22,580 nt of DNA from a virus: positions 1 to 22,580 of IMG/VR virus record IMGVR_UViG_3300042866_000695; one strand, written 5' to 3'. Below the pieces are notes generated by a model that saw only the letters and a list, made by a program, of their open reading frames with translations, did not search any database and was not told where the DNA came from. This document shows, piece by piece, positions 1-18,825 of this stretch. The stretch's first letter is position 1, and every line of letters begins with the position of its first letter. The position numbers were made by a program, and so were the translations under genes.

Positions 1-86
1 AACGGGACTAGTGCGTGCCTGCCCATCAGGAACCTCGCAACGTCTTGTCTGGGGCCACTGATGGGGGTGCCGTGGTAGTGGATCAT
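1..86 (-). CDS. Partial N-terminus, candidate DpdA-like transglycosylase (runs off window)
   Basis: Only the first 28 codons are present; the gene continues past position 1. The ATG at 86-84 overlaps the TGA of the transporter gene (ATGA), so the two are translationally coupled. The visible protein reads MIHYHGTPISG... ...ARFLMGRHALVP. From memory, this HGTPI...GRHALV opening is typical of a phage protein family that continues with a DNGAF motif comparable to DSGGFQ of tRNA-guanine transglycosylases, i.e. DpdA-like enzymes that insert 7-deazaguanines into DNA. The catalytic part is outside the window, so the assignment rests on a short N-terminus plus the transporter neighbour. It could be another conserved phage protein of unknown role. 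Confidence 0.45.
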   Translation of the reverse strand, partial: MIHYHGTPISGPRQDVARFLMGRHALVP

Positions 87-565
87 CGCGCCCAGCGGCG
101 GATGACCAGCGCCCAGACCGCGCCGCCCGCGACCTTGGCCACGAACTGCAGCGCCACGATGTGCGGCAGGAACCCGCCGAACGCGATGGTCGGGAAGATC
201 AGGCTGTCGGCCAGCGCGCCTGCGGCGTTGCTGCCGTTGGACCGGGTCAGGTAGCCGCGCTTGATCAGAGCCTGGTAGACCGTGGCGTCGACCACTGCGG
301 CCATCGTGAAGGCGACCATCGAGGCCAGCGCGATCTTGCCGGCGGCCGGGTTCAGCAGGTAGGAGATCGCGCCAGCTGCAGCGATCAGCGCCAGCATCCG
401 CGGCACCAACTGCGGGCCGCGCCACTTCTCGTGCAGGTGGTCGCGCAATGAGAGGTCCAGGCCGATCAGCAGGAACGCGTTGATCGGGGACACCCACGGG
501 CCGAAAGCGGCGACCGACAGGTTGGCGCCAGTGATGGCGGCGATGTAGAGGGCGATGGGAAGCAT
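83..565 (-). CDS. VUT/YhhQ-type queuosine precursor (preQ0/preQ1) transporter, short phage form
   Basis: This is a 160-aa hydrophobic protein with about five membrane segments. The C-terminal half carries the family pattern: DATVYQ, then RSNGSNAAGALADSLIFPTIAFGG, then a closing AAKVAGGAVWALV helix. This fits the DUF165/VUT family, whose E. coli member YhhQ imports preQ0/preQ1 across the inner membrane. At 160 aa it is shorter than YhhQ (about 220 aa), as many phage copies are. The ATG at 565 has a GAAAG about 8 nt upstream. It follows a promoter/operator at about 613 and overlaps the next gene by ATGA. Known family role: precursor uptake. Inferred role here: feeding a phage base-modification enzyme. 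Confidence 0.8.
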   Translation of the reverse strand: MLPIALYIAAITGANLSVAAFGPWVSPINAFLLIGLDLSLRDHLHEKWRGPQLVPRMLALIAAAGAISYLLNPAAGKIALASMVAFTMAAVVDATVYQALIKRGYLTRSNGSNAAGALADSLIFPTIAFGGFLPHIVALQFVAKVAGGAVWALVIRRWAR

Positions 566-608
566 GGGGGTCTTTCAGGGGTGGTTCGGAAAGCAGAGTG
601 TACAGGAA

Positions 609-627
609 ATCTTAGCGTGTGCTACAG
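609..627 (-). promoter_or_regulatory. Promoter/operator C for the transporter unit
   Basis: On the minus strand the sequence is TGTAGCACACGCTAAGAT. The 12-bp core TAGCAC/ACGCTA is a near-palindrome shared with the sites at 4043, 8758 and 9751. It overlaps an extended -10 (CGCTAAGAT; -10 hexamer at 614-609). It lies about 45 bp upstream of the transporter start. No good -35 is visible, so it would act as an extended -10 promoter or be activated. Confidence 0.5.
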
Positions 628-703
628 CTTAAACAGGTGTTCTAACTCGTATAATGTATATTGTGACCAAGCAAAATGCTAAAGCGGTCACTAACTTAGG
701 CCT

Positions 704-756
704 TGCATCCTGCATCAACGGCTCGTTGCAGGTGCTACGTGCAAGTGCAGGATGCA
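704..756 (-). terminator. Inverted repeat after the SNF2/DUF3310 operon, possible terminator or RNA 3' end
   Basis: Perfect 11-bp arms TGCATCCTGCA (704-714) and TGCAGGATGCA (746-756) enclose a 31-nt loop that contains a second small hairpin (CAACG gct CGTTG, 716-728). It begins one base after the stop codon at 757. There is no U-tract, so this is not a classical intrinsic terminator; it may instead be an RNA stability or processing element. Confidence 0.35.
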
Positions 757-951
757 CTACGACCGCCTCGCCTGCAACTTTTCCCAGTCCTTCGCGCACT
801 CGACGTCGCACCAGCGCTGCTCGTCGCCCACGATCTCGTCGCAGTAGAGGCACCGGCCGGTGGCAACAGGCCCCACCGGCTTGCGCACGGCCTGGGCGAA
901 CGTGCGGGCGAGCTCCTCGCGCTCGCTGGCGATGTCGAGGTTGTCGCTCAT
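757..951 (-). CDS. Small zinc-finger-like protein
   Basis: This 64-aa protein has four cysteines arranged C34-x2-C37 ... C48-x3-C52 (CLYCDE ... RWCDVECAKDWEKL), a likely zinc knuckle. The N-terminal half (SEREELARTFAQAV) looks helical. The ATG at 951-949 overlaps the TGA of the DUF3310 gene (ATGA), which fixes the start and argues it is real. It is the last gene of the nine-gene unit. The zinc knuckle resembles those of small phage nucleic-acid-binding proteins, but I do not recognise a named family and assign no function. Confidence 0.75.
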   Translation of the reverse strand: MSDNLDIASEREELARTFAQAVRKPVGPVATGRCLYCDEIVGDEQRWCDVECAKDWEKLQARRS

Positions 952-1508
952 TTCCTGGTCTCCAGCTCGATCAGCAGGTCGATGAAGTGGCGGGCCTTCT
1001 TCAGGTCCTCGACCCCACCCTTGTCGCGCCAGCGAGTCAGGTACTTGATCGCGCACCCCTCGGCGAACGGGATGCCGTTCGCATGGATGTACTCGATCGG
1101 CTGGATCTTCATCTTCTTGTAGTGGTCGCCGCCCTCCTGTTTGCCAAGGGCGCTGGCCGGCGTGAAGGCCTTCTCTGCTAGTGCGGGGTGGAGCGCACCT
1201 GCAGCCTGGAACCTGGACGCCAACCCCTGGAAGGTATCCGGCATCTTGGGCATCTCCAGAATGTCACGCAGTGGTTTTGGCCGCGGCGTCGCTGCGGCAA
1301 GCAGTTCCTCCCCGGGGGGTAGGATCAACAGGCCGGTCGGATCGGACTTGATATCGGAGTCCAGCCTGCGCGTGCCCGTCCAGGGGTTGAAGGCCCACAG
1401 ACGGTGGGGGTAGCGCTCCCTGCAGTCAGCACCTGTGAGCGTTACCGACATGGTCAGCAAGCTGCCTGTAATCGGGCTGTATTTCAGGGGGGTATTTTGG
1501 GAGTGCAT
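948..1508 (-). CDS. DUF3310-containing protein
   Basis: This 186-aa protein has a clear DUF3310 domain at about residues 126-183, with GGDHYKKMKIQPIEYI, an Ala-Ile-Lys-Tyr-Leu-Thr-Arg core and KARHFIDLLIEL. DUF3310 is common in phage replication regions; it was linked to nucleotide metabolism (SaV-like), but the activity is unproven. The N-terminal 120 residues are a separate segment containing CRERYPHRLWAFNPWTG, of unknown role. The ATG at 1508 overlaps the helicase stop (TGATG), with AAAAGGAAA upstream as ribosome site. A GTG one codon earlier is possible. A second in-frame ATG 19 codons in (before SVTLTGADC) is a possible alternative start. Confidence 0.8.
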   Translation of the reverse strand: MHSQNTPLKYSPITGSLLTMSVTLTGADCRERYPHRLWAFNPWTGTRRLDSDIKSDPTGLLILPPGEELLAAATPRPKPLRDILEMPKMPDTFQGLASRFQAAGALHPALAEKAFTPASALGKQEGGDHYKKMKIQPIEYIHANGIPFAEGCAIKYLTRWRDKGGVEDLKKARHFIDLLIELETRK

Positions 1509-2914
1509 CACTGTTTCCTTTTCATGTATTCAAGCAGCGCGTCCTGCACGCTGCGCTTGCCGTCCCGTCGGGCCAGCACCACCTCGTCGACCGTGCCCCT
1601 GGCCACCAGGTAGTGCACGAACACGTTCTTGCCGGTGCCGGCCTGGAGCTGGCGCATGGGGCCCACGCGCTCGATGATCTGGTCGTGCAGATCCAGGCGC
1701 CAGGTCTGGCCAAAGAACACCACCGTGTTGCAGTGCTCCTGCAGCCCGTCGATGCCCTCGCCGATGCTGGCCGGGTGGCCGATCCACAGCTTGCCCTTGC
1801 CGGCCTTGGCCTGGGCGAGGTGGTCCTCGCGCGCCAGGTCCAGTGCGTCGGGCCACTCGCGCAGGATGCGCTCGCGGTCTGACTTGAACTCGTAGGTCAC
1901 CAGCAGCGGGTCGTCGCCGGTCTCCTCCATCAGCTCGCCCAGCGCGTCGAGCTTCTCGCGGTGGAACTCGATCCACTTGCCCGGGCCGTAGCGCTCGGGG
2001 TCCAGGTACGCGGCCCCGTTGGCCAGCTGCAGGCACTTGTTGCTGAGTGCCGCGGCGTTGAACACCTCGACCTCGGTCTCGCCCAGCATCGTGAACAGCT
2101 CGCGCTCGAGCTCGCGGTACTTGACCTTGGCGCTGGCCGGTAGGTCGACCTCAATCACGTTGACGATCGGCTCGCGCAAATCGAACCAGTCCTTCGGGTC
2201 CAGCGTCAGGCAGATGTCAGCCAGTCGTGCGTGGATCTCCTCGTGCGCGTTGGGCAGGATCACCGGCACGATGCCGGGCTTCTTGCTGATCGCGTCGATC
2301 ACCCGCTTGTAGGCGAACCAGCGCTCCTCGAAAGCACTGTAGGTGCGCCCCAGGCGCTGGCCTGCGTCAAGGAACCACATGGCACCCCACAGGTCCTTCA
2401 ACCCGTTGCTGGCTGGGGTGCCGGTGAGCTGGATGAACCGCTTGACCTTGGTGTGTGCGACCGTGCCCAGGGCCTGCGCCCGGGCGGTGCCCTGGCGAAT
2501 CCTGAAACCCTTGAGGCGCACCGCCTCGTCGGCCACCACGGTGGCGAAGGGCCAGCGGTCACCGTAGAAGTCCACGATCCAGGGCAGCTGATCGTAGTTC
2601 GTCACGAAGATCGGCGCGCTCTTGCGCAGCGCGGCCTTGCGCTGCTCGAGCGTGCCCACCACCGGCACCACCTCGAGGCCCCGCAGGTGTTGCCACTTCG
2701 CGGCCTCTGTGGCCCAAGTGTCGCGCGCCACGCGCAGCGGCGCCAGCACGAGGGTCGGCGCACTCTCACCCCACACCCGGTGGAGGATCTCCAGGTGGGT
2801 GAGGGTTAGCACGCTCTTGCCCATGCCAGGCTTTGCCCACAGGGCGCAGCGGGGCTGGTTTATGAAGTGCTCCATCGCCAGCGGGGCGAAGGCGCGCGGG
2901 ACGTAGTCCTTCAT
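1508..2914 (-). CDS. SNF2-type DEAD-like DNA helicase/translocase
   Basis: This 468-aa protein is the usual size for phage SNF2-like helicases. Motif I (Walker A) is KPGMGKS at 28-34, motif Ia LVLAPLRV about 56-63, motif II VVADEA at 126-131, and motif III QLTGTPASNGLKDLW from 162. The C-terminal half has GEGIDGLQ (motif V) and IIERVGPMRQ (motif VI; usually Q-x2-GRxxRxGQ). It probably remodels protein-DNA or fork structures during phage replication. The chosen ATG at 2914 overlaps the stop of the 51-aa gene upstream (ATGA) and has GAAGAG as ribosome site; a longer frame to 3085 would read into the neighbouring genes. Confidence 0.92.
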   Translation of the reverse strand: MKDYVPRAFAPLAMEHFINQPRCALWAKPGMGKSVLTLTHLEILHRVWGESAPTLVLAPLRVARDTWATEAAKWQHLRGLEVVPVVGTLEQRKAALRKSAPIFVTNYDQLPWIVDFYGDRWPFATVVADEAVRLKGFRIRQGTARAQALGTVAHTKVKRFIQLTGTPASNGLKDLWGAMWFLDAGQRLGRTYSAFEERWFAYKRVIDAISKKPGIVPVILPNAHEEIHARLADICLTLDPKDWFDLREPIVNVIEVDLPASAKVKYRELERELFTMLGETEVEVFNAAALSNKCLQLANGAAYLDPERYGPGKWIEFHREKLDALGELMEETGDDPLLVTYEFKSDRERILREWPDALDLAREDHLAQAKAGKGKLWIGHPASIGEGIDGLQEHCNTVVFFGQTWRLDLHDQIIERVGPMRQLQAGTGKNVFVHYLVARGTVDEVVLARRDGKRSVQDALLEYMKRKQ

Positions 2915-3066
2915 CTCTTCGCCTGCTGCGCCTTCGCGCCCAACAGGCCGGCGTCCTTCTTGGCCTGGATGTTGAGAATGTAGGCAGCCAGCTCGCCGGC
3001 GGTGCGCCGCCAGTCGAAGGCGTTGCCCGTCGAGCGGGGGAGGGTGGTGCCGGGCCAGTACTTCAC
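2911..3066 (-). CDS. Small protein, unknown (51 aa)
   Basis: A GTG start at 3066 overlaps the stop of the VRR-NUC gene (GTGA), and the TGA overlaps the helicase ATG (ATGA). The protein begins MKYWPGTTLPRSTGNAFDWR and continues with a helix containing GELAAYILNIQAKK. Overlaps at both ends and in-frame continuity make it very likely a real gene. It has no recognisable domain; its place between nuclease and helicase suggests an accessory replication role, which is inference only. Confidence 0.75.
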   Translation of the reverse strand: MKYWPGTTLPRSTGNAFDWRRTAGELAAYILNIQAKKDAGLLGAKAQQAKR

Positions 3067-3377
3067 GACAGCAGCTCCTCGACACCCTCGATCGAGTCGA
3101 TCACGACGACGCGCTGGCCCATCTTGCGCATGCGCTTGTGCTCCCGCAGCTGGTAGTCCTCGGGCGCCACGCCGGTGGCCTTGAGCTCGACCCAGATGGT
3201 GCGCCCACTGCGCACAACGCGCGGCGGCTGGTCAAGGCGCGTAGCCGGGCCGAACACCGGCAGCATCACCAGCCGATCCGGCGCACCGCGCCGGCCGATC
3301 CACTGGACCTTGCGCACCTCGCCGCCCAGCGCCTTCACGCGCTTGACGAGGTGCTTTTCGATTGTTGACTCACGCAC
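3063..3377 (-). CDS. VRR-NUC domain nuclease
   Basis: This 104-aa protein is a stand-alone VRR-NUC (PD-(D/E)XK) nuclease. The active-site pattern is visible: GAPDRLVM (31-38, catalytic D34), WVELKATG (62-69, E64-x-K66) and the downstream Q (DYQLREHKR, 74-82). In phages this small nuclease is commonly encoded next to a SNF2 helicase, as here, and is thought to process branched DNA. The start is a GTG at 3377, giving MRESTIEKHLVKRVK; longer frames upstream lie inside the zinc-ribbon gene. It overlaps that gene by 43 nt, the longest overlap in this unit. Confidence 0.9.
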   Translation of the reverse strand: MRESTIEKHLVKRVKALGGEVRKVQWIGRRGAPDRLVMLPVFGPATRLDQPPRVVRSGRTIWVELKATGVAPEDYQLREHKRMRKMGQRVVVIDSIEGVEELLS

Positions 3378-3520
3378 GGTGTGCCTTTCTTGAATTCGTG
3401 GATCCGCTCCAACGTACTGAAGCGGTGGTGGTTGAAGCACTCGTAGCGGCGGCGCACGCCAGCCGTTGTGCGACGGGTCTCGAGTACGTCGGCCGGCTTG
3501 TTGCAGACCGGACACTTCAC
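3335..3520 (-). CDS. Stand-alone NrdR-like zinc ribbon protein
   Basis: This 61-aa protein begins MKCPVCNKP, and the RRRYEC-x2-H-HRFSTLER stretch follows at 23-39. That is the N-terminal zinc ribbon of the ribonucleotide-reductase repressor NrdR (CPxC ... RRRxCxxCxxRFTTxE), but the fourth ligand is His31 instead of Cys and the ATP-cone domain is absent. It may bind DNA or RNA. The GTG start at 3520 overlaps the TGA of the upstream gene (GTGA). Confidence 0.75.
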   Translation of the reverse strand: MKCPVCNKPADVLETRRTTAGVRRRYECFNHHRFSTLERIHEFKKGTPCVSQQSKSTSSSA

Positions 3521-3702
3521 ACCAGCACCAAGATCCCGGCCAGCGCGGCCACGGCGATGATGCACGCGCCGAGCACGAGCTTGTCTTGCCAGTCCATCGG
3601 ACGTTCGGTGTGCTCGAGGGCGCACGCATAGTCGACGTCGTTGGCTGTCTGGCGCTGGGTGCGCGTGTAGCGCGGGGGGCAGTCGAGGAAAAGGGGTTTC
3701 AT
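3517..3702 (-). CDS. Small single-pass membrane protein
   Basis: This 61-aa protein has a polar N-terminal part and a C-terminal membrane helix (LVLGACIIAVAALAGILVLV, residues 42-61) ending at the last residue. ATG 3702 overlaps the upstream stop (ATGA) and its stop overlaps the next GTG. The tail-anchored layout suggests a membrane-associated accessory protein. Family unknown. Confidence 0.7.
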   Translation of the reverse strand: MKPLFLDCPPRYTRTQRQTANDVDYACALEHTERPMDWQDKLVLGACIIAVAALAGILVLV

Positions 3703-3794
3703 AGCGGGGCCTCGTCGAAGTTGTCAGGGTTGAAGGGGATGGGCTGGGCCGGCTGCCGGGGCGGCAGCTGGGTGGGGAAGGGCCAGGTGGTCAC
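3699..3794 (-). CDS. Very small Pro-rich protein (31 aa)
   Basis: A GTG at 3794 overlaps the previous stop (GTGA), and its TGA overlaps the following ATG (ATGA). The product reads MTTWPFPTQLPPRQP... and ends DNFDEAPL; eight of 31 residues are proline. The precise double overlap is the main evidence for translation. No family recognised. Confidence 0.55.
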   Translation of the reverse strand: MTTWPFPTQLPPRQPAQPIPFNPDNFDEAPL

Positions 3795-4006
3795 AGGCCC
3801 ACCTCGGCGCGCTGGACAACGGCCACCGTGCGCAGGTTGCGGAAGCGGACCTGCAGCGGGAACGAGTGCGCCGGGATCTGGGGTAGGTTGATCGGCAGCG
3901 GGCGGCCCGGGCCGTCGGACCAGATGAAGTCCTTGTTGGCTTTTAGGTCGGAGATCACGGCGGCCTTCGACGTGTAGTCGCGACCGTAGGCGGGGATGAG
4001 GTGCAT
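3791..4006 (-). CDS. Unknown phage protein, first gene of the nine-gene unit
   Basis: This 71-aa protein starts MHLIPAYGRDYTSKAAVISD and contains a basic, beta-like C-terminal part (FPLQVRFRNLRTVAVVQRAE). ATG 4006 is chosen because GGAG lies 8 nt upstream; the frame extends to 4048 but would start inside the promoter. The KDF..SDG arrangement resembles small conserved proteins of betaproteobacterial phages, function unknown. It is directly downstream of the promoter/operator at 4039-4057. Confidence 0.75.
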   Translation of the reverse strand: MHLIPAYGRDYTSKAAVISDLKANKDFIWSDGPGRPLPINLPQIPAHSFPLQVRFRNLRTVAVVQRAEVGL

Positions 4007-4038
4007 ACTGCTTGCTCCAGGTGGTTGTTGATCTGTGA

Positions 4039-4057
4039 ATTGTAGCACCTGCTAAAT
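4039..4057 (-). promoter_or_regulatory. Promoter/operator A for the nine-gene replication unit
   Basis: The minus strand reads TTTAGCAGGTGCTACAAT. TAGCAGGTGCTA (4054-4043) is a perfect 5+5 palindrome with a 2-bp spacer and overlaps an extended -10, TGC-TACAAT (hexamer 4044-4039). It lies between the polymerase stop and the start at 4006. The same element occurs before other transcription units. Confidence 0.55.
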
Positions 4058-4071
4058 CCCAAGAGAAACGC

Positions 4072-6171
4072 TCAACCTTTCCGATACCGCGTGCACTCGA
4101 ACCCAGCGGCGGCCAGCGGGATGCCCTTCGCCCACACTGGTGGGTGCGCCATCATCTTCGCCAGGCCTTTGCAGTCGAACTGGCGCGGGTCGTCTGGTGT
4201 CTCGGTGATCAGCTCGTCGTGCACGGAGAGCACGATCTCGTAACCGCAGGCCTCGATCAGCGGCATGCTGCTGGCCATCACGTCGCGCGCGAAGGCCTGG
4301 GTGCAGTTCTCGATGATCTTGCCGCCGTAGGTTTTGATGGCGCCCCATTGCCTTGTGTACTGGTTGACTCCGAAATACGAAATCTGCCCGTTGTCGTCGA
4401 CCTTCGGGTTGATGTAGCAGAGGTATCGCCCAGAGGGCAGGCGGATGCGCAGCCACGCACCATCGCGGCGGGCCTTGAGGTGCTCGCCGATGGCGAAGGT
4501 CTCACCCGGGTGCGCGATCGCAGCGCGCACGCTCTCACCCGCTGCGTGCCACAGCGCGGTGGTGTGTGGGTGCGCGTCGCGCCAGGCGCGCTTGAGCACC
4601 TCGCAGGCGACGTACACATCCTGCGGCAGGCCGAGCGTGCGCTTCTTGCCAGTCGCCCACTTCCACACGCCAAGGGCATCCTCGAGCGCTTCGCGTGAGG
4701 CCGTGTCCCACACCGCCTTCGCCAGCTCCTGCAGGTCCATGTTGTAGACCGCGGCGAAGGTCAGGAACGCCGCGACGCCGCCCTCGTACCCGAGACCGAG
4801 CTCCATCACCTTGCCGATCTGGCGCTTCTGCCCGACCGCCTCCTTGGGGTCGATGTTGAACGACCGGCCGTAGGCGACCTTGTAAAGGTCCTCGCCGGTG
4901 CCAGCGTCGAAGTCGGCGAAGGCCTTGAGCTTCCATCGCTCACCGGCCAGGAAGGCCAGCCCCCGGCCTTCGATGTTGGAGAGGTCGGCCACCACCAGCT
5001 TCTTGCCGGGCGGGGCCGCGATGCAGCCGCGGATCGCGTTGGCCGTCTGCTGCATCACGTTGGTGTAGACCAGGTCGGCGCAGCCGGTCTTGAGCGCCTC
5101 GACCACCAGGTCCTGCGCGGCCTCGTCGAAGCCGGGCTCAGGCCTGGGCAGGTTCTGAGGCTGGAAGATCCGACCGGCCCACCGCGCCGTGCGCTGCGCG
5201 CCGGCGAACTGCAGGGTGTTGCGCAGGCGGCCGTCGGCGCTGGTCGCATTGACCAGGGCCTTGTACTTGGCGGTGCTGGTCTTGGTGGCCTCCAGTCGGA
5301 TCGACAGCAGCAGCTTCACGCCCTCGGGCAGCTCGGGGTCCTCGAGCCGGCGGCGCAGCGTGTCGGCCTTCATGTCGGGCAGGTCGACACCGTACTCGGC
5401 CAGGATGAACGCCAACAGGTTGTCGCGCTGGCTGGCGTTGGTTACCAGGCCGTCGGTCTGGTCGGTGACCTCGGCCTTCAGTCGCTTTTGCTCACGCGCC
5501 ACCGCATCAATCGCTGCCCGCGCCAGGTCAATATCAACGGCGACCCCCCGATCGTTGATGCGCTGGTCAAGGTGCCAGAGCGCCAGCTCAGGATGACCAG
5601 TGCGGTAGTTCCAGCTCGGCAGGCGTTGGCCGATGGCCCGCATGGCGACGATGTCTTGTCTGGAATACTCGAGAAACTCGGACCACTCTTTGGGGTGTGA
5701 TTCACGGGTAGCCCTTCGCAGTGCGTGGCCCTTGGGCCGGGGTTTACAGAACAACTGGATCAGCTCGCGCCCGCGCTTGTCCTTCGCCTGGTCGGCCTCC
5801 AGTCCTACGATCTGGCCGATCTTATCCAGACCGCCTGGCAGGCCGTGCGCCATCGCCTGGATCATCGTGTCCTGCCAACGCTCCACGGGCACGTCGATGC
5901 CCCAGCAGTGGCGCAGCAACGTGCGGTCGAAGGCACTGTTGTGGGCGGCGATCAGGACGGTGGGGTCGAACTGTAACGCCGCGAACAGGTCGGCCGTAAG
6001 GTCTGGGCGCTCGCCTGCAGTGCAGTCCCACACTTGCGGTTCACCGTCGTCGATCGCCCACTGGGCCACGGTGATCTCGGTGCTGGGGTGCTCGGCGTAG
6101 CGGTGCGTGCCGTGCGCTTTGAGGTCGCACTCGCTGTAGGTCTCGCAGTCAAACCAGAGGGTGGTCATCAT
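4072..6171 (-). CDS. Family A DNA polymerase with 3'-5' exonuclease (phage PolA type)
   Basis: This 699-aa replicative polymerase has an N-terminal DEDDy exonuclease: D8-x-E10, HNSAFD at 77-82, and YSRQD at 169-173. The polymerase domain has motif A VADLSNIEGR (D396), motif B R450-x3-K454-x7-Y462 (RQIGKVMELGLGYEGG) and motif C VHDE (650-653). No 5' nuclease domain is present. The O-helix residue equal to E. coli Phe762 is Leu458, a variant reported as associated with temperate viruses. The start is ATGATG at 6171 or 6168, with GAAAG upstream. It is separated from the SSB-like gene by the structured 250-bp region, unlike the tightly packed genes elsewhere. Confidence 0.95.
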   Translation of the reverse strand: MMTTLWFDCETYSECDLKAHGTHRYAEHPSTEITVAQWAIDDGEPQVWDCTAGERPDLTADLFAALQFDPTVLIAAHNSAFDRTLLRHCWGIDVPVERWQDTMIQAMAHGLPGGLDKIGQIVGLEADQAKDKRGRELIQLFCKPRPKGHALRRATRESHPKEWSEFLEYSRQDIVAMRAIGQRLPSWNYRTGHPELALWHLDQRINDRGVAVDIDLARAAIDAVAREQKRLKAEVTDQTDGLVTNASQRDNLLAFILAEYGVDLPDMKADTLRRRLEDPELPEGVKLLLSIRLEATKTSTAKYKALVNATSADGRLRNTLQFAGAQRTARWAGRIFQPQNLPRPEPGFDEAAQDLVVEALKTGCADLVYTNVMQQTANAIRGCIAAPPGKKLVVADLSNIEGRGLAFLAGERWKLKAFADFDAGTGEDLYKVAYGRSFNIDPKEAVGQKRQIGKVMELGLGYEGGVAAFLTFAAVYNMDLQELAKAVWDTASREALEDALGVWKWATGKKRTLGLPQDVYVACEVLKRAWRDAHPHTTALWHAAGESVRAAIAHPGETFAIGEHLKARRDGAWLRIRLPSGRYLCYINPKVDDNGQISYFGVNQYTRQWGAIKTYGGKIIENCTQAFARDVMASSMPLIEACGYEIVLSVHDELITETPDDPRQFDCKGLAKMMAHPPVWAKGIPLAAAGFECTRYRKG

Positions 6172-6422
6172 CCATCTTTCAAAAAGGTCGCCCGTTCCGA
6201 GGAATGACCGCTTTCAGTTTCCAGCAGCACGGTCTGCTCAGTCGCGCCCCGGATAGCAGTACCGGGCGGGGGCGCGACATATTCCTCAGCGATGCGCAGG
6301 GTGGGTGAGTCCCGGCTAGGAGTTGCTGCTCCCGATGTTTGGTGAGGGGCCTGACTTCACAGGCAGCCCGGCGAACCAACCGGGGCCCTCACCAAACAGC
6401 CCCCTCGAGGGGGCCGCCTGGG
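6172..6422 (-). ncRNA. Structured gene-free region: two candidate three-way junctions
   Basis: This is a 251-bp gap inside an otherwise compact operon, packed with inverted repeats. Element 1: a 13-bp perfect stem (6336-6348 / 6386-6398) encloses two hairpins, 6349-6353/6360-6364 and 6367-6371/6380-6384, with only 0, 2 and 1 unpaired junction bases. Element 2: GAGGAAT/ATTCCTC (6199-6205 / 6281-6287) encloses GACCG/CGGTC (6206-6210 / 6230-6234) and a 10-bp stem GTCGCGCCCC/GGGGCGCGAC (6241-6250 / 6269-6278). A 16-bp palindrome (6399-6414) precedes both. It may be a structured RNA, a cis-regulatory leader of the polymerase gene, or a replication element. Confidence 0.5.
6399..6414 (-). terminator. 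GC-rich palindrome after the SSB-like gene, partial terminator candidate
   Basis: The perfect palindrome GCCCCCTCGAGGGGGC starts 9 bases after the stop codon of the ssDNA-binding protein gene. In the transcript direction it is followed by TGTTTGG, so the U-tract is weak. It could attenuate transcription into the polymerase gene or just protect the mRNA end. Confidence 0.4.
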
Positions 6423-17406: not shown

Positions 17407-18825
17407 ATGGGCACCAAGACATCGAACGGATTTCAGTGGCTCGAGGACAGCGAGACGGGCGATCCCACAGGCGTGCGCCGAGCGCGCGACGGCAAGGCGT
17501 TCAACCTAGCCAGGCTGAGTGCGGATGGCACATCCCTGGTGTCAGGGGATGGGAAATCCTTGCCTTTGACGCTGACTCAACAGCACAAACGATGGATGGA
17601 ATTCATAACCGTTGCCAGCACTACGCCGTGGAACGATCAGGCTGGCACCGGGCTTACCCTCGCAGTTGATACCGCCGTGCTGTTTAATGGGCAGCCAACG
17701 TTGCGCCTTGATATTCCGGCGAGTTCTAGCGGCACGTACCGAGTGGGCACCACGCTGGCAACGCTGAACATGCCTTACCTGTGGGATGGTAAGCAACTGG
17801 CCGTTGCCGTCAAGTCATCCAACATGACAGCCTGCGATGGCGTTACCGGCGTGCTGCTGGGTGATGCTACTTTCACGAACTTCTACACGTTCACCGGACA
17901 ACGCAACGCGGCCAACGTACCGCAGGCCAATTGGGTGGCCGGTGATTGGATTATTTCACGCGGCACCGTTGCAACGCAGACGGCTTCGGGCACATTCGTT
18001 GGGCAAAAGCGGCTGCGAATCAACTTCACCATATCAAGCGTTGGCACTGCCACGCAAATCTGGATCGGCTTCGTCGGCATTGCAGCGCAAAAAAAGCCAA
18101 CGGTGATCCTGTCGATTGACGACGGGTACGCCAGCGGGTATTCATTTATCGCGCCACTTGCCCGCTACTACAAGATCCCGGTGAGTTTCGGGATTGATAG
18201 ATCCTATGTCGGCACAGCCAACTATTTCACCTCCGCACAGATTCAGGAATTGCAGGCCGATCCAAGCAACCTGTTTGAGTTCGTCACGCACGGCTTCAAC
18301 AACCAAACGATCAACACCACCACCGTCGAGGCGTACATCGCAGACCAAGTAGCCACGCGCTCCTATCTGCGCGGCCTTGGAATCAATGGCGACGGCCCAA
18401 ATCATCACCCGTGGGTGCAAAGCCTCTACAGCAACACGGCACAGGCGCAATTGAAGGCGGCTGGCTTCCTGTCTGCCCGCGCAGGGGTGGCAACACCGCT
18501 ATCCATGCACGATGCCCTGATGACGACCGGCGACGAAAAGCGCGTCTATCAGCTTATCAACTGCTGCACGCTAACGACAGGCTTGACGCTGGGGGCCGCT
18601 CAAACAGCGGTGACCACGGCTTGCACGACAGAAGGCTATGGTGTCACGCACGTTAACGCGCACGACTTTGCCGTATCGGACGCTGCCAGCCCGCCGACAT
18701 GGAGCTTCGACAAAATGACGGAGCTTATGGGGTGGCTCGACGCACAGCGCACTGCTGGAGTTTGCGACATCAAATCGTGGGGCCAGTGGTACGCCGATCT
18801 AGCTGGCGTGCCCTACGGCAAGTAA
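17407..18825 (+). CDS. Polysaccharide-deacetylase-like (NodB-fold) protein with phage N-terminus, moron-like
   Basis: This 472-aa protein has three parts. Residues 1-55 (GFQWLEDSETGDPTGVRRAR, then KAFNLARLS) are GC-rich like the neighbours. Residues 56-228 are beta-rich, perhaps carbohydrate-binding. Residues 232-465 are NodB-like: VILSIDDGY (D238, D239) and EFVTHGFNN (H295); the usual second metal His (H-x3-H) is Asn299, so activity is uncertain. AGGAGG precedes ATG 17407, and a terminator follows. Hand-counted GC is 50% at 18181-18240 versus 60% at 16381-16440 in the portal gene. Position between portal and capsid suggests a virion-attached or acquired cargo gene; it might act on host surface polysaccharide. 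Confidence 0.8.
   Translation: MGTKTSNGFQWLEDSETGDPTGVRRARDGKAFNLARLSADGTSLVSGDGKSLPLTLTQQHKRWMEFITVASTTPWNDQAGTGLTLAVDTAVLFNGQPTLRLDIPASSSGTYRVGTTLATLNMPYLWDGKQLAVAVKSSNMTACDGVTGVLLGDATFTNFYTFTGQRNAANVPQANWVAGDWIISRGTVATQTASGTFVGQKRLRINFTISSVGTATQIWIGFVGIAAQKKPTVILSIDDGYASGYSFIAPLARYYKIPVSFGIDRSYVGTANYFTSAQIQELQADPSNLFEFVTHGFNNQTINTTTVEAYIADQVATRSYLRGLGINGDGPNHHPWVQSLYSNTAQAQLKAAGFLSARAGVATPLSMHDALMTTGDEKRVYQLINCCTLTTGLTLGAAQTAVTTACTTEGYGVTHVNAHDFAVSDAASPPTWSFDKMTELMGWLDAQRTAGVCDIKSWGQWYADLAGVPYGK

What the first reader, a model, noticed from the sequence alone, without database searches (positions are those of the whole stretch)
1..565. Possible phage 7-deazaguanine DNA modification cluster at the left edge
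A preQ0/preQ1-type VUT transporter is translationally coupled (ATGA) to a gene whose first 28 residues resemble a DpdA-like phage family. Known: DpdA enzymes insert preQ0 derivatives into phage DNA and protect it from host restriction; phages often encode precursor synthesis genes. Here no synthesis gene is seen in the window, so the phage would rely on importing precursor. An import-only modification system would be uncommon.
Basis: partly seen in the sequence, partly recalled or inferred. Interest (0 to 1): 0.7.

Follow-up and report, generated by a model that had tools for sequence, protein, structure and literature searches.

The report
Phage DNA-modification enzyme with precursor importer
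At its edge this virus fragment carries a small membrane importer overlapping the start of an enzyme of a type thought to swap guanine in phage DNA for a modified base; the pair is real and widespread in phages, and whether the importer is what feeds the enzyme can now be tested.

Summary
Window 83-565(-) is a Vut_1-family transporter. The gene starting at 86(-) overlaps it by ATGA. A 99.3%-identical contig (L005) carries that gene 340 nt past the window edge and shows a FDNGAF motif; an 87% relative (L006) gives the whole 237-aa protein. It is PHROG 887, and its model fits TGT/DpdA structures best (archaeal TGT Z 15.2, DpdA 7ui4 Z 13.5). D48, D86 and H113 are invariant in 75 of 75 homologues, D189 in 74 (one truncated). 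MED16 and 7-11, whose DNA carries measured dADG, belong to the same family. The pairing is not chance: 72 of 80 phage loci with this transporter have DpdA within 2 kb, 64 of them adjacent. It is also not uncommon. Ten named phages have the pair without QueC or QueD, and Hutinet 2019 already proposed uptake for DpdA-only phages. 'Import-only' as dependence is not supported: five of five bacterial genomes carrying the pair, and E. coli, encode QueC. Best reading: an accessory two-gene module in which the importer tops up 7-deazaguanine for a DNA transglycosylase. New here are the strength of the linkage and partner swapping. Substrate, modified base and function remain untested.

The parts
1..86 (-). 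5' end (28 codons) of a short DpdA/TGT-like gene running off the left edge; continues in near-identical contig L005 and is complete in L006 (237 aa)
83..565 (-). Vut_1-family six-helix transporter, 160 aa, short phage type (PHROG 4899)
83..86 (-). ATGA overlap: stop of VUT and start of dpdA, the usual form of translational coupling
   Evidence: 4-nt overlap also in L005 and L006
566..756 (-). Intergenic leader upstream of VUT, 48% GC against 65% for the window; perfect 11-nt inverted repeat 704-714/746-756; no Rfam riboswitch, no sigma-70-like promoter or terminator by consensus
951..1511 (-). DUF3310 gene next to the leader, in the region matching BPP-1 bbp48; in BPP-1 the next genes are excisionase and integrase instead of VUT-dpdA

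Best explanation
A two-gene accessory module at the end of the replication operon of a BPP-1-like podophage. The Vut_1 protein is a small membrane importer for a 7-deazaguanine (preQ0, preQ1 or a relative). The overlapping gene is a short (~237 aa) TGT-fold transglycosylase of the MED16/7-11 DpdA type that exchanges guanines in phage DNA for that base. The hosts that could be checked can also make preQ0, so import most likely tops up a limiting pool rather than replacing host synthesis. Shown: both genes, their overlap, fold, conserved putative active-site residues, and linkage across phages. Inferred: transporter substrate, DNA as target, the base inserted, and benefit against restriction.
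For: Complete homologue L006 is PHROG 887 'queuine tRNA-ribosyltransferase' E 3.4e-61, L005's 141 residues E 4.2e-40. AlphaFold pLDDT 86; VIA-align best matches archaeal TGT 1j2b Z 15.2, bacterial TGTs ~13.8, DpdA 7ui4 Z 13.5. D48, D86, H113, G134 in 75 of 75 homologues, D189 in 74 of 75, MED16 and 7-11 included. VUT model (pLDDT 94.5) best fits ECF S-components, 5edl Z 11.2, TmRibU 10.3. Linkage: of 80 VUT-selected loci 64 have DpdA <150 nt away and 8 more within 2 kb, in both orders; among 28 representatives analysed with a simple gene caller DpdA is the neighbour in 21 and the next commonest family within five genes in 6; 5 of 50 VUT loci in bacterial genomes have it. QueC and QueD in 0 of 51 records while DpdA is in 43. 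MED16 (354) and 7-11 (50 per 10^6 nt) carry dADG with no known synthesis gene.
Against: No DNA measured for any phage with the pair, to my knowledge. Pfam, NCBIfam and PDB sequence searches do not hit the protein, though NCBIfam DpdA also misses MED16 and Pfam TGT also misses CAjan. Direct hhalign to ten bacterial TGTs is no better than column shuffles. Foldseek's top PDB hits are TrpA barrels, TGT at rank 28. VUT falls below the TIGR00697 and YhhQ cut-offs. Of 79 further loci chosen by DpdA, 70 have no VUT in the fetched stretch, so DpdA does not need it.
Confidence: 0.65

Rival explanations
1. Import-only in the strict sense: the phage's hosts lack preQ0 synthesis and modification depends wholly on uptake by the phage transporter.
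For: No QueC/QueD in the window and 50 related records or in ten named phages with the pair. In L022 the same VUT overlaps a DpdA with a DpdC-like tail, a set that would need only imported preQ0.
Against: All five bacterial genomes found with the pair encode full-length QueC and TGT; E. coli, host of LHE71, Opt-719 and RCIP0319, rings in the QueC control. The window's own host is unknown.
Confidence: 0.12
2. The transglycosylase acts on something other than phage DNA: tRNA, another RNA or a protein, as the TGT-like Cap10 may do in the Cap10-CdnD complex; VUT then feeds that reaction.
For: Cap10-CdnD 9ntn is the third-best structural match, Z 14.4. MED16 and 7-11 DNA carry only trace dADG. Fold does not show substrate.
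Against: The family contains MED16 and 7-11 whose DNA does carry dADG; a relative (ZHS) sits beside FolE in a phage with QueC and QueD.
Confidence: 0.13
3. VUT and DpdA are merely neighbours; VUT imports another compound or serves an unrelated accessory function.
For: mEp021 has the VUT beside a gene annotated as cytosine methyltransferase and no DpdA in the fetched stretch; 45 of 50 bacterial VUT loci lack this DpdA; the fold is shared by many vitamin S-components.
Against: 72 of 80 phage loci linked, both gene orders, overlapping reading frames in most; VUT also overlaps a different DpdA type in L022.
Confidence: 0.07

Closest known systems
Pantoea phage vB_PagS_MED16 DpdA and Salmonella phage 7-11 DpdA (DpdA-only phages; Hutinet 2019, Simoliuniene 2021)
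   Same: Same short DpdA family: 38% and 32% identity to L006 DpdA by tblastn, same conserved residues, no QueC or QueD
   Different: No VUT found beside dpdA in these two; their DNA was measured (trace dADG), this phage's was not
Pectobacterium phage PEAT2, Acinetobacter phage AB3P2, Escherichia phages LHE71, Opt-719, RCIP0319 and ECO111 5-P, Flyfo siphovirus Tbat1_6, Enterobacter phage Phc, Pseudanabaena phage Pam5, Rhizobium phage RHph_X2_30
   Same: VUT and short DpdA side by side (one small gene between them in Pam5, two in RHph_X2_30), no QueC or QueD
   Different: Different phage backbones; dpdA comes first in AB3P2 and Pam5; VUT 35-55% identical to the window's where one search found it
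Enterobacter phage EC151 and Seuratvirus preQ0 clusters
   Same: Phage-encoded preQ0 transporter in a 7-deazaguanine DNA modification cluster
   Different: EC151 encodes the full synthesis set folE, queD, queC, queE besides dpdA
E. coli YhhQ (COG1738, PF02592)
   Same: Vut_1 family
   Different: Window protein is 160 aa and scores below the TIGR00697 and PRK11212 cut-offs; substrate untested

Membership tests
Short phage DpdA (PHROG 887; MED16/7-11 type) | Profile match over the length of the protein | tested here: met
   L006 E 3.4e-61 over 1-228; L005's 141 aa E 4.2e-40; the window's own 28 aa only E 0.36 by PHROG but 2.9e-10 by the family profile
Short phage DpdA (PHROG 887; MED16/7-11 type) | DNGAF Asp and ADST Asp (putative acid/base and nucleophile, assigned from TGT motifs as recalled) | tested here: met
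   D48 75 of 75, D189 74 of 75. In L005, near-identical to the window phage, D48 is seen; D189 lies beyond its end
TGT/DpdA superfamily | TGT-type TIM barrel | tested here: met
   AF2 model of L006 DpdA; VIA-align ranks archaeal TGT, Cap10, bacterial TGT and DpdA 7ui4 at Z 13-15; barrels are common and Foldseek alone put TrpA first
NCBIfam NF041059 DpdA / Pfam PF01702 TGT | Score above model cut-off | tested here: not met
   No hit. Neither discriminates: MED16 DpdA is missed by NF041059 and the CAjan record by PF01702
7-deazaguanine DNA modification system | Modified base in virion DNA, lost when dpdA is deleted | not testable with these tools
   Needs LC-MS; published only for relatives and for CAjan
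7-deazaguanine DNA modification system | Phage-encoded precursor synthesis (FolE, QueD, QueE, QueC) | tested here: inconclusive
   QueC and QueD absent in the 22.6-kb fragment and 50 related records; the record is incomplete; FolE and QueE were not searched by family in whole records
Vut_1 (PF02592) | Score above Pfam gathering cut-off | tested here: met
   48.9 vs 27.2 bits
Queuosine precursor transporter TIGR00697 / YhhQ PRK11212 | Score above curated cut-off | tested here: not met
   33.8 vs 50.95 and 19.8 vs 252 bits

The most novel reading that the evidence does not exclude
A large, little-recognised class of phages runs a minimal supply-and-insert hypermodification module: a short DpdA paired interchangeably with a precursor importer (VUT), with QueE, or with a ~80-aa protein of invariant C-P, E, E, H-x-G residues that may be a stripped-down QueF-like nitrile enzyme making the unexplained dADG; the same importer is also coupled to a DpdA with a DpdC-like tail. 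DpdA-only phages show trace modification because precursor is limiting; those with the importer would be heavily modified from environmental 7-deazaguanines.
Probability: 0.22. Interest if true: 0.72.

Novelty: new member of a known kind. Interest (0 to 1): 0.45.

Why it matters
Hutinet 2019 left open where DpdA-only phages, its largest group, get their precursor, and saw no correlation of YhhQ with any group. Here one transporter subfamily is tied to one DpdA subfamily in most loci examined, and several of these phages have E. coli as the host named in their records (LHE71: K-12). That makes the question testable: does the phage importer set the level of DNA modification, and from which precursor?

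Tried and rejected
Riboswitch upstream of VUT (preQ1 riboswitches often control such transporters, recalled): an Rfam evalue scan of window 1-1600 gave only two chance-level eukaryotic families, and a gathering scan of 11 sources gave none. The 195-nt leader folds only slightly better than shuffles, z -1.71. Promoter and terminator consensus: none in 1-1000.

QueF-like identity of the ~80-aa partner: hhalign puts Cys on Cys and HE on HE of host QueF, but 4 of 200 column-shuffled profiles score as high, and Pfam, NCBIfam, PADLOC and PDB searches give nothing meaningful. Kept only as a lead. It is not found in the window nor in the 9.4-kb L006. MED16 gp37, beside dpdA, is not this protein (no hit).

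TGT by sequence profile alone: hhalign of the DpdA family to ten bacterial TGTs pairs DNGAF with DSGGF but not above shuffles, so the TGT claim rests on the model, the PHROG family and the conserved residues.

PF01702 as a test for phage DpdA: rejected as uninformative, since the CAjan record also fails it. Literature: Cui 2023 on further DpdA subfamilies is not held; what I know of it is recalled and not used as evidence. Searches for DpdL and Cap10 papers found nothing useful. Searches that could have shown a paper on the VUT-DpdA pair led to EC151, a listing of GATOR-GC (not read) and general mentions; I do not claim the pair is absent from print.

Full report
What is there. The window is a whole IMG/VR record of 22,580 bases classed as a linear fragment. 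Its left arm runs on the minus strand: a family A DNA polymerase, an SNF2 helicase and a DUF3310 protein (Pfam), then the VUT gene at 83-565 and the start of a gene at 86 that leaves the window after 28 codons. The two share ATGA. DNA similarity to named phages is best to Bordetella phage BPP-1 and kin (67% identity over 53% of window 1-6200). In BPP-1 the DUF3310-equivalent gene is followed by excisionase and integrase; here the VUT-dpdA pair follows, so the pair looks like an accessory module.

Extending past the edge. L005, found by VUT, matches window 3804-1 at 99.3% and runs 340 nt further. It gives 141 residues of the left gene with the motif FDNGAF. L006 (87% DNA identity at this end) gives the complete protein of 237 aa. 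In L006 no synthesis gene is evident by eye among the ORFs after dpdA.

What the left gene is. PHROG 887, annotated queuine tRNA-ribosyltransferase, E 3.4e-61. Pfam and PDB sequence searches find nothing. An AlphaFold model from 59 relatives has pLDDT 86. Foldseek ranks TrpA barrels first and TGT 28th, but realignment by VIA-align puts archaeal TGT first (Z 15.2), then the Cap10-CdnD complex (14.4), bacterial TGTs (about 13.8), human QTRT1 and the DpdA crystal structure 7ui4 (both 13.5). In a 75-sequence alignment with MED16, 7-11, HK106, Vibrio phages and ZHS, D48, G50, D86, H113 and G134 are invariant and D189 is missing only by one gap; L005 is the truncated row. The divergent member ZHS reads GIGGLVG and SVDSTSW, which resemble TGT motifs as I recall them, and sits beside a GTP cyclohydrolase I gene in a phage with QueC and QueD. 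By direct profile alignment to bacterial TGT the link is not significant.

What the VUT is. Vut_1 by Pfam, PHROG 4899, below the NCBI cut-offs for queuosine precursor transporter and YhhQ. Its model (pLDDT 94.5, six helices) fits ECF S-components best (5edl Z 11.2); for helical proteins such Z values are only indicative.

How tight the pairing is. The best 80 of 147 VUT relatives in viral contigs were kept. In 64 the DpdA lies under 150 nt away (54 DpdA first, 10 VUT first), in 8 more within 2 kb, and in 8 none of this DpdA type was found. At 90% VUT identity, of 35 representatives 27 are adjacent, 4 near and 4 without. Of 72 pairs, 47 overlap by 8 nt or less and 16 by more, the latter depending on start choice; 9 have gaps. 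Of the eight exceptions, L022 has the VUT overlapping a 425-aa protein that matches DpdA (NCBIfam NF041059 E 2.2e-26, below cut-off; PADLOC DpdA 5.9e-25) with a DpdC-like tail (1.2e-5); L026 has what looks like the same protein and L023 part of it. In L082 the VUT starts close to the contig edge. L025 has a 216-aa neighbour with DNGCF of unknown kind (PHROG 15826). L065, L073 and L077 show none. As contrast, 50 VUT loci from bacterial genomes have this DpdA nearby in 5. So VUT predicts DpdA, not the reverse.

Named phages. Of 22 GenBank phage records with the VUT I read ten; nine have DpdA beside it: PEAT2, AB3P2, LHE71, Flyfo Tbat1_6, Opt-719, Phc, RCIP0319, Pam5, ECO111 5-P; mEp021 does not in the fetched stretch. 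RHph_X2_30 is a further case. The whole records of these ten phages have no QueC and no QueD, while CAjan and ZHS ring in both.

Is it import-only? In the window and 50 of the 80 VUT-set records (picked mostly for length) QueC and QueD are in 0 of 51, DpdA in 43; most are fragments. In 42 DpdA-set records QueC appears once, weakly (L126's record, 23.3 bits). But all five bacterial genomes carrying the pair (L176, L186, L204, L211, L217) have full-length QueC and TGT. By their titles three are isolates and two are MAGs, in which a phage contig could be a binning artefact. E. coli, host of several such phages, also has QueC (control). The host can therefore make preQ0, and import is better read as a boost. 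EC151's authors read a transporter beside full synthesis genes in the same way (PMC8310023, passages).

What is known. [quoted passage not shown] 7-11 had dADG at 50 per 10^6 nt, Orion none. PMC8306585 (abstract, outline and passages): MED16, DpdA only, dADG 354 per 10^6 nt, minimal effect on restriction. So the idea of uptake is published; what is added is that one VUT subfamily is tightly tied to one DpdA subfamily. Other papers were seen as passages only (PMC7472734, PMC11945000, PMC8878043, PMC8472413); PMC9382816 on Pam5 had no match for the terms asked.

Partner swapping. L085's DpdA (79% identical to L006's) is preceded directly by a QueE homologue (TIGR04508 E 2.7e-30, below its cut-off). 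A ~80-aa protein (PHROG 37496 for the Epa33 copy; invariant C12-P13, E34, E49, H69, G71) is found in 55 of 79 DpdA-set loci and 11 of 80 VUT-set loci, beside DpdA or VUT. Searched on its own, 78 of 78 newly fetched loci carry DpdA, 76 within 60 nt. It resembles QueF by eye; the statistics are weak. It is absent from the window as far as the window goes.

Judgement. A real and correctly read pair, member of a known kind, with an overstated rarity and dependence. Interest is moderate because it gives a clear test bench in laboratory E. coli.

Noticed in passing
L002:6756-6998 (Epa33 gp12); L086:3194-3433; L008:926-1165; L259:4001-4231: A ~80-aa conserved protein (PHROG 37496) directly beside DpdA in many phages, invariant C-P, E, E, H-x-G; may be a reduced QueF-like enzyme, evidence weak (4 of 200 shuffles as good).
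   Followed up: partly
L085:1397-2020: QueE homologue (7-carboxy-7-deazaguanine synthase) overlapping the start of a DpdA closely related to the window's, in place of VUT.
   Followed up: partly
L022:163-1440; L026:1739-3016: 425-aa protein overlapping VUT that looks like DpdA with a DpdC-like C-terminal part (PADLOC PDC-M57A 9.8e-38): possible transporter plus insertion-and-conversion fusion.
   Followed up: partly
window 644-756; L006:5660-5800: A similar noncoding element (GTGCATCCTGCAC...AGCACCTGC...GGTCACAATATACATTAT) lies upstream of VUT in the window but downstream of dpdA in L006; in the window it includes a perfect 11-nt inverted repeat. Meaning unknown.
   Followed up: partly
L349 (mEp021) 2459-3726: VUT-like membrane protein followed by a gene annotated as DNA cytosine methyltransferase, without DpdA in the fetched stretch.
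   Followed up: no
L235, L236, L237, L233-L234: Bacterial regions: an extra QueC with a weak TGT-like match in L235 and L236; QueC beside the short VUT in L237; TGT-like matches and a QueE-like gene near VUT in L233-L234. Possibly chromosomal deazaguanine islands.
   Followed up: no
L184, L188, L191, L202, L212, L219: In contigs labelled SAR324, Deltaproteobacteria or Proteobacteria the short VUT sits in a conserved chromosomal neighbourhood without DpdA, so the transporter also exists as a cellular gene.
   Followed up: no
window 17407-18825: 472-aa ORF between portal and capsid genes with a stretch that looks like a polysaccharide deacetylase by eye (SIDDG); no Pfam hit at 0.001.
   Followed up: partly
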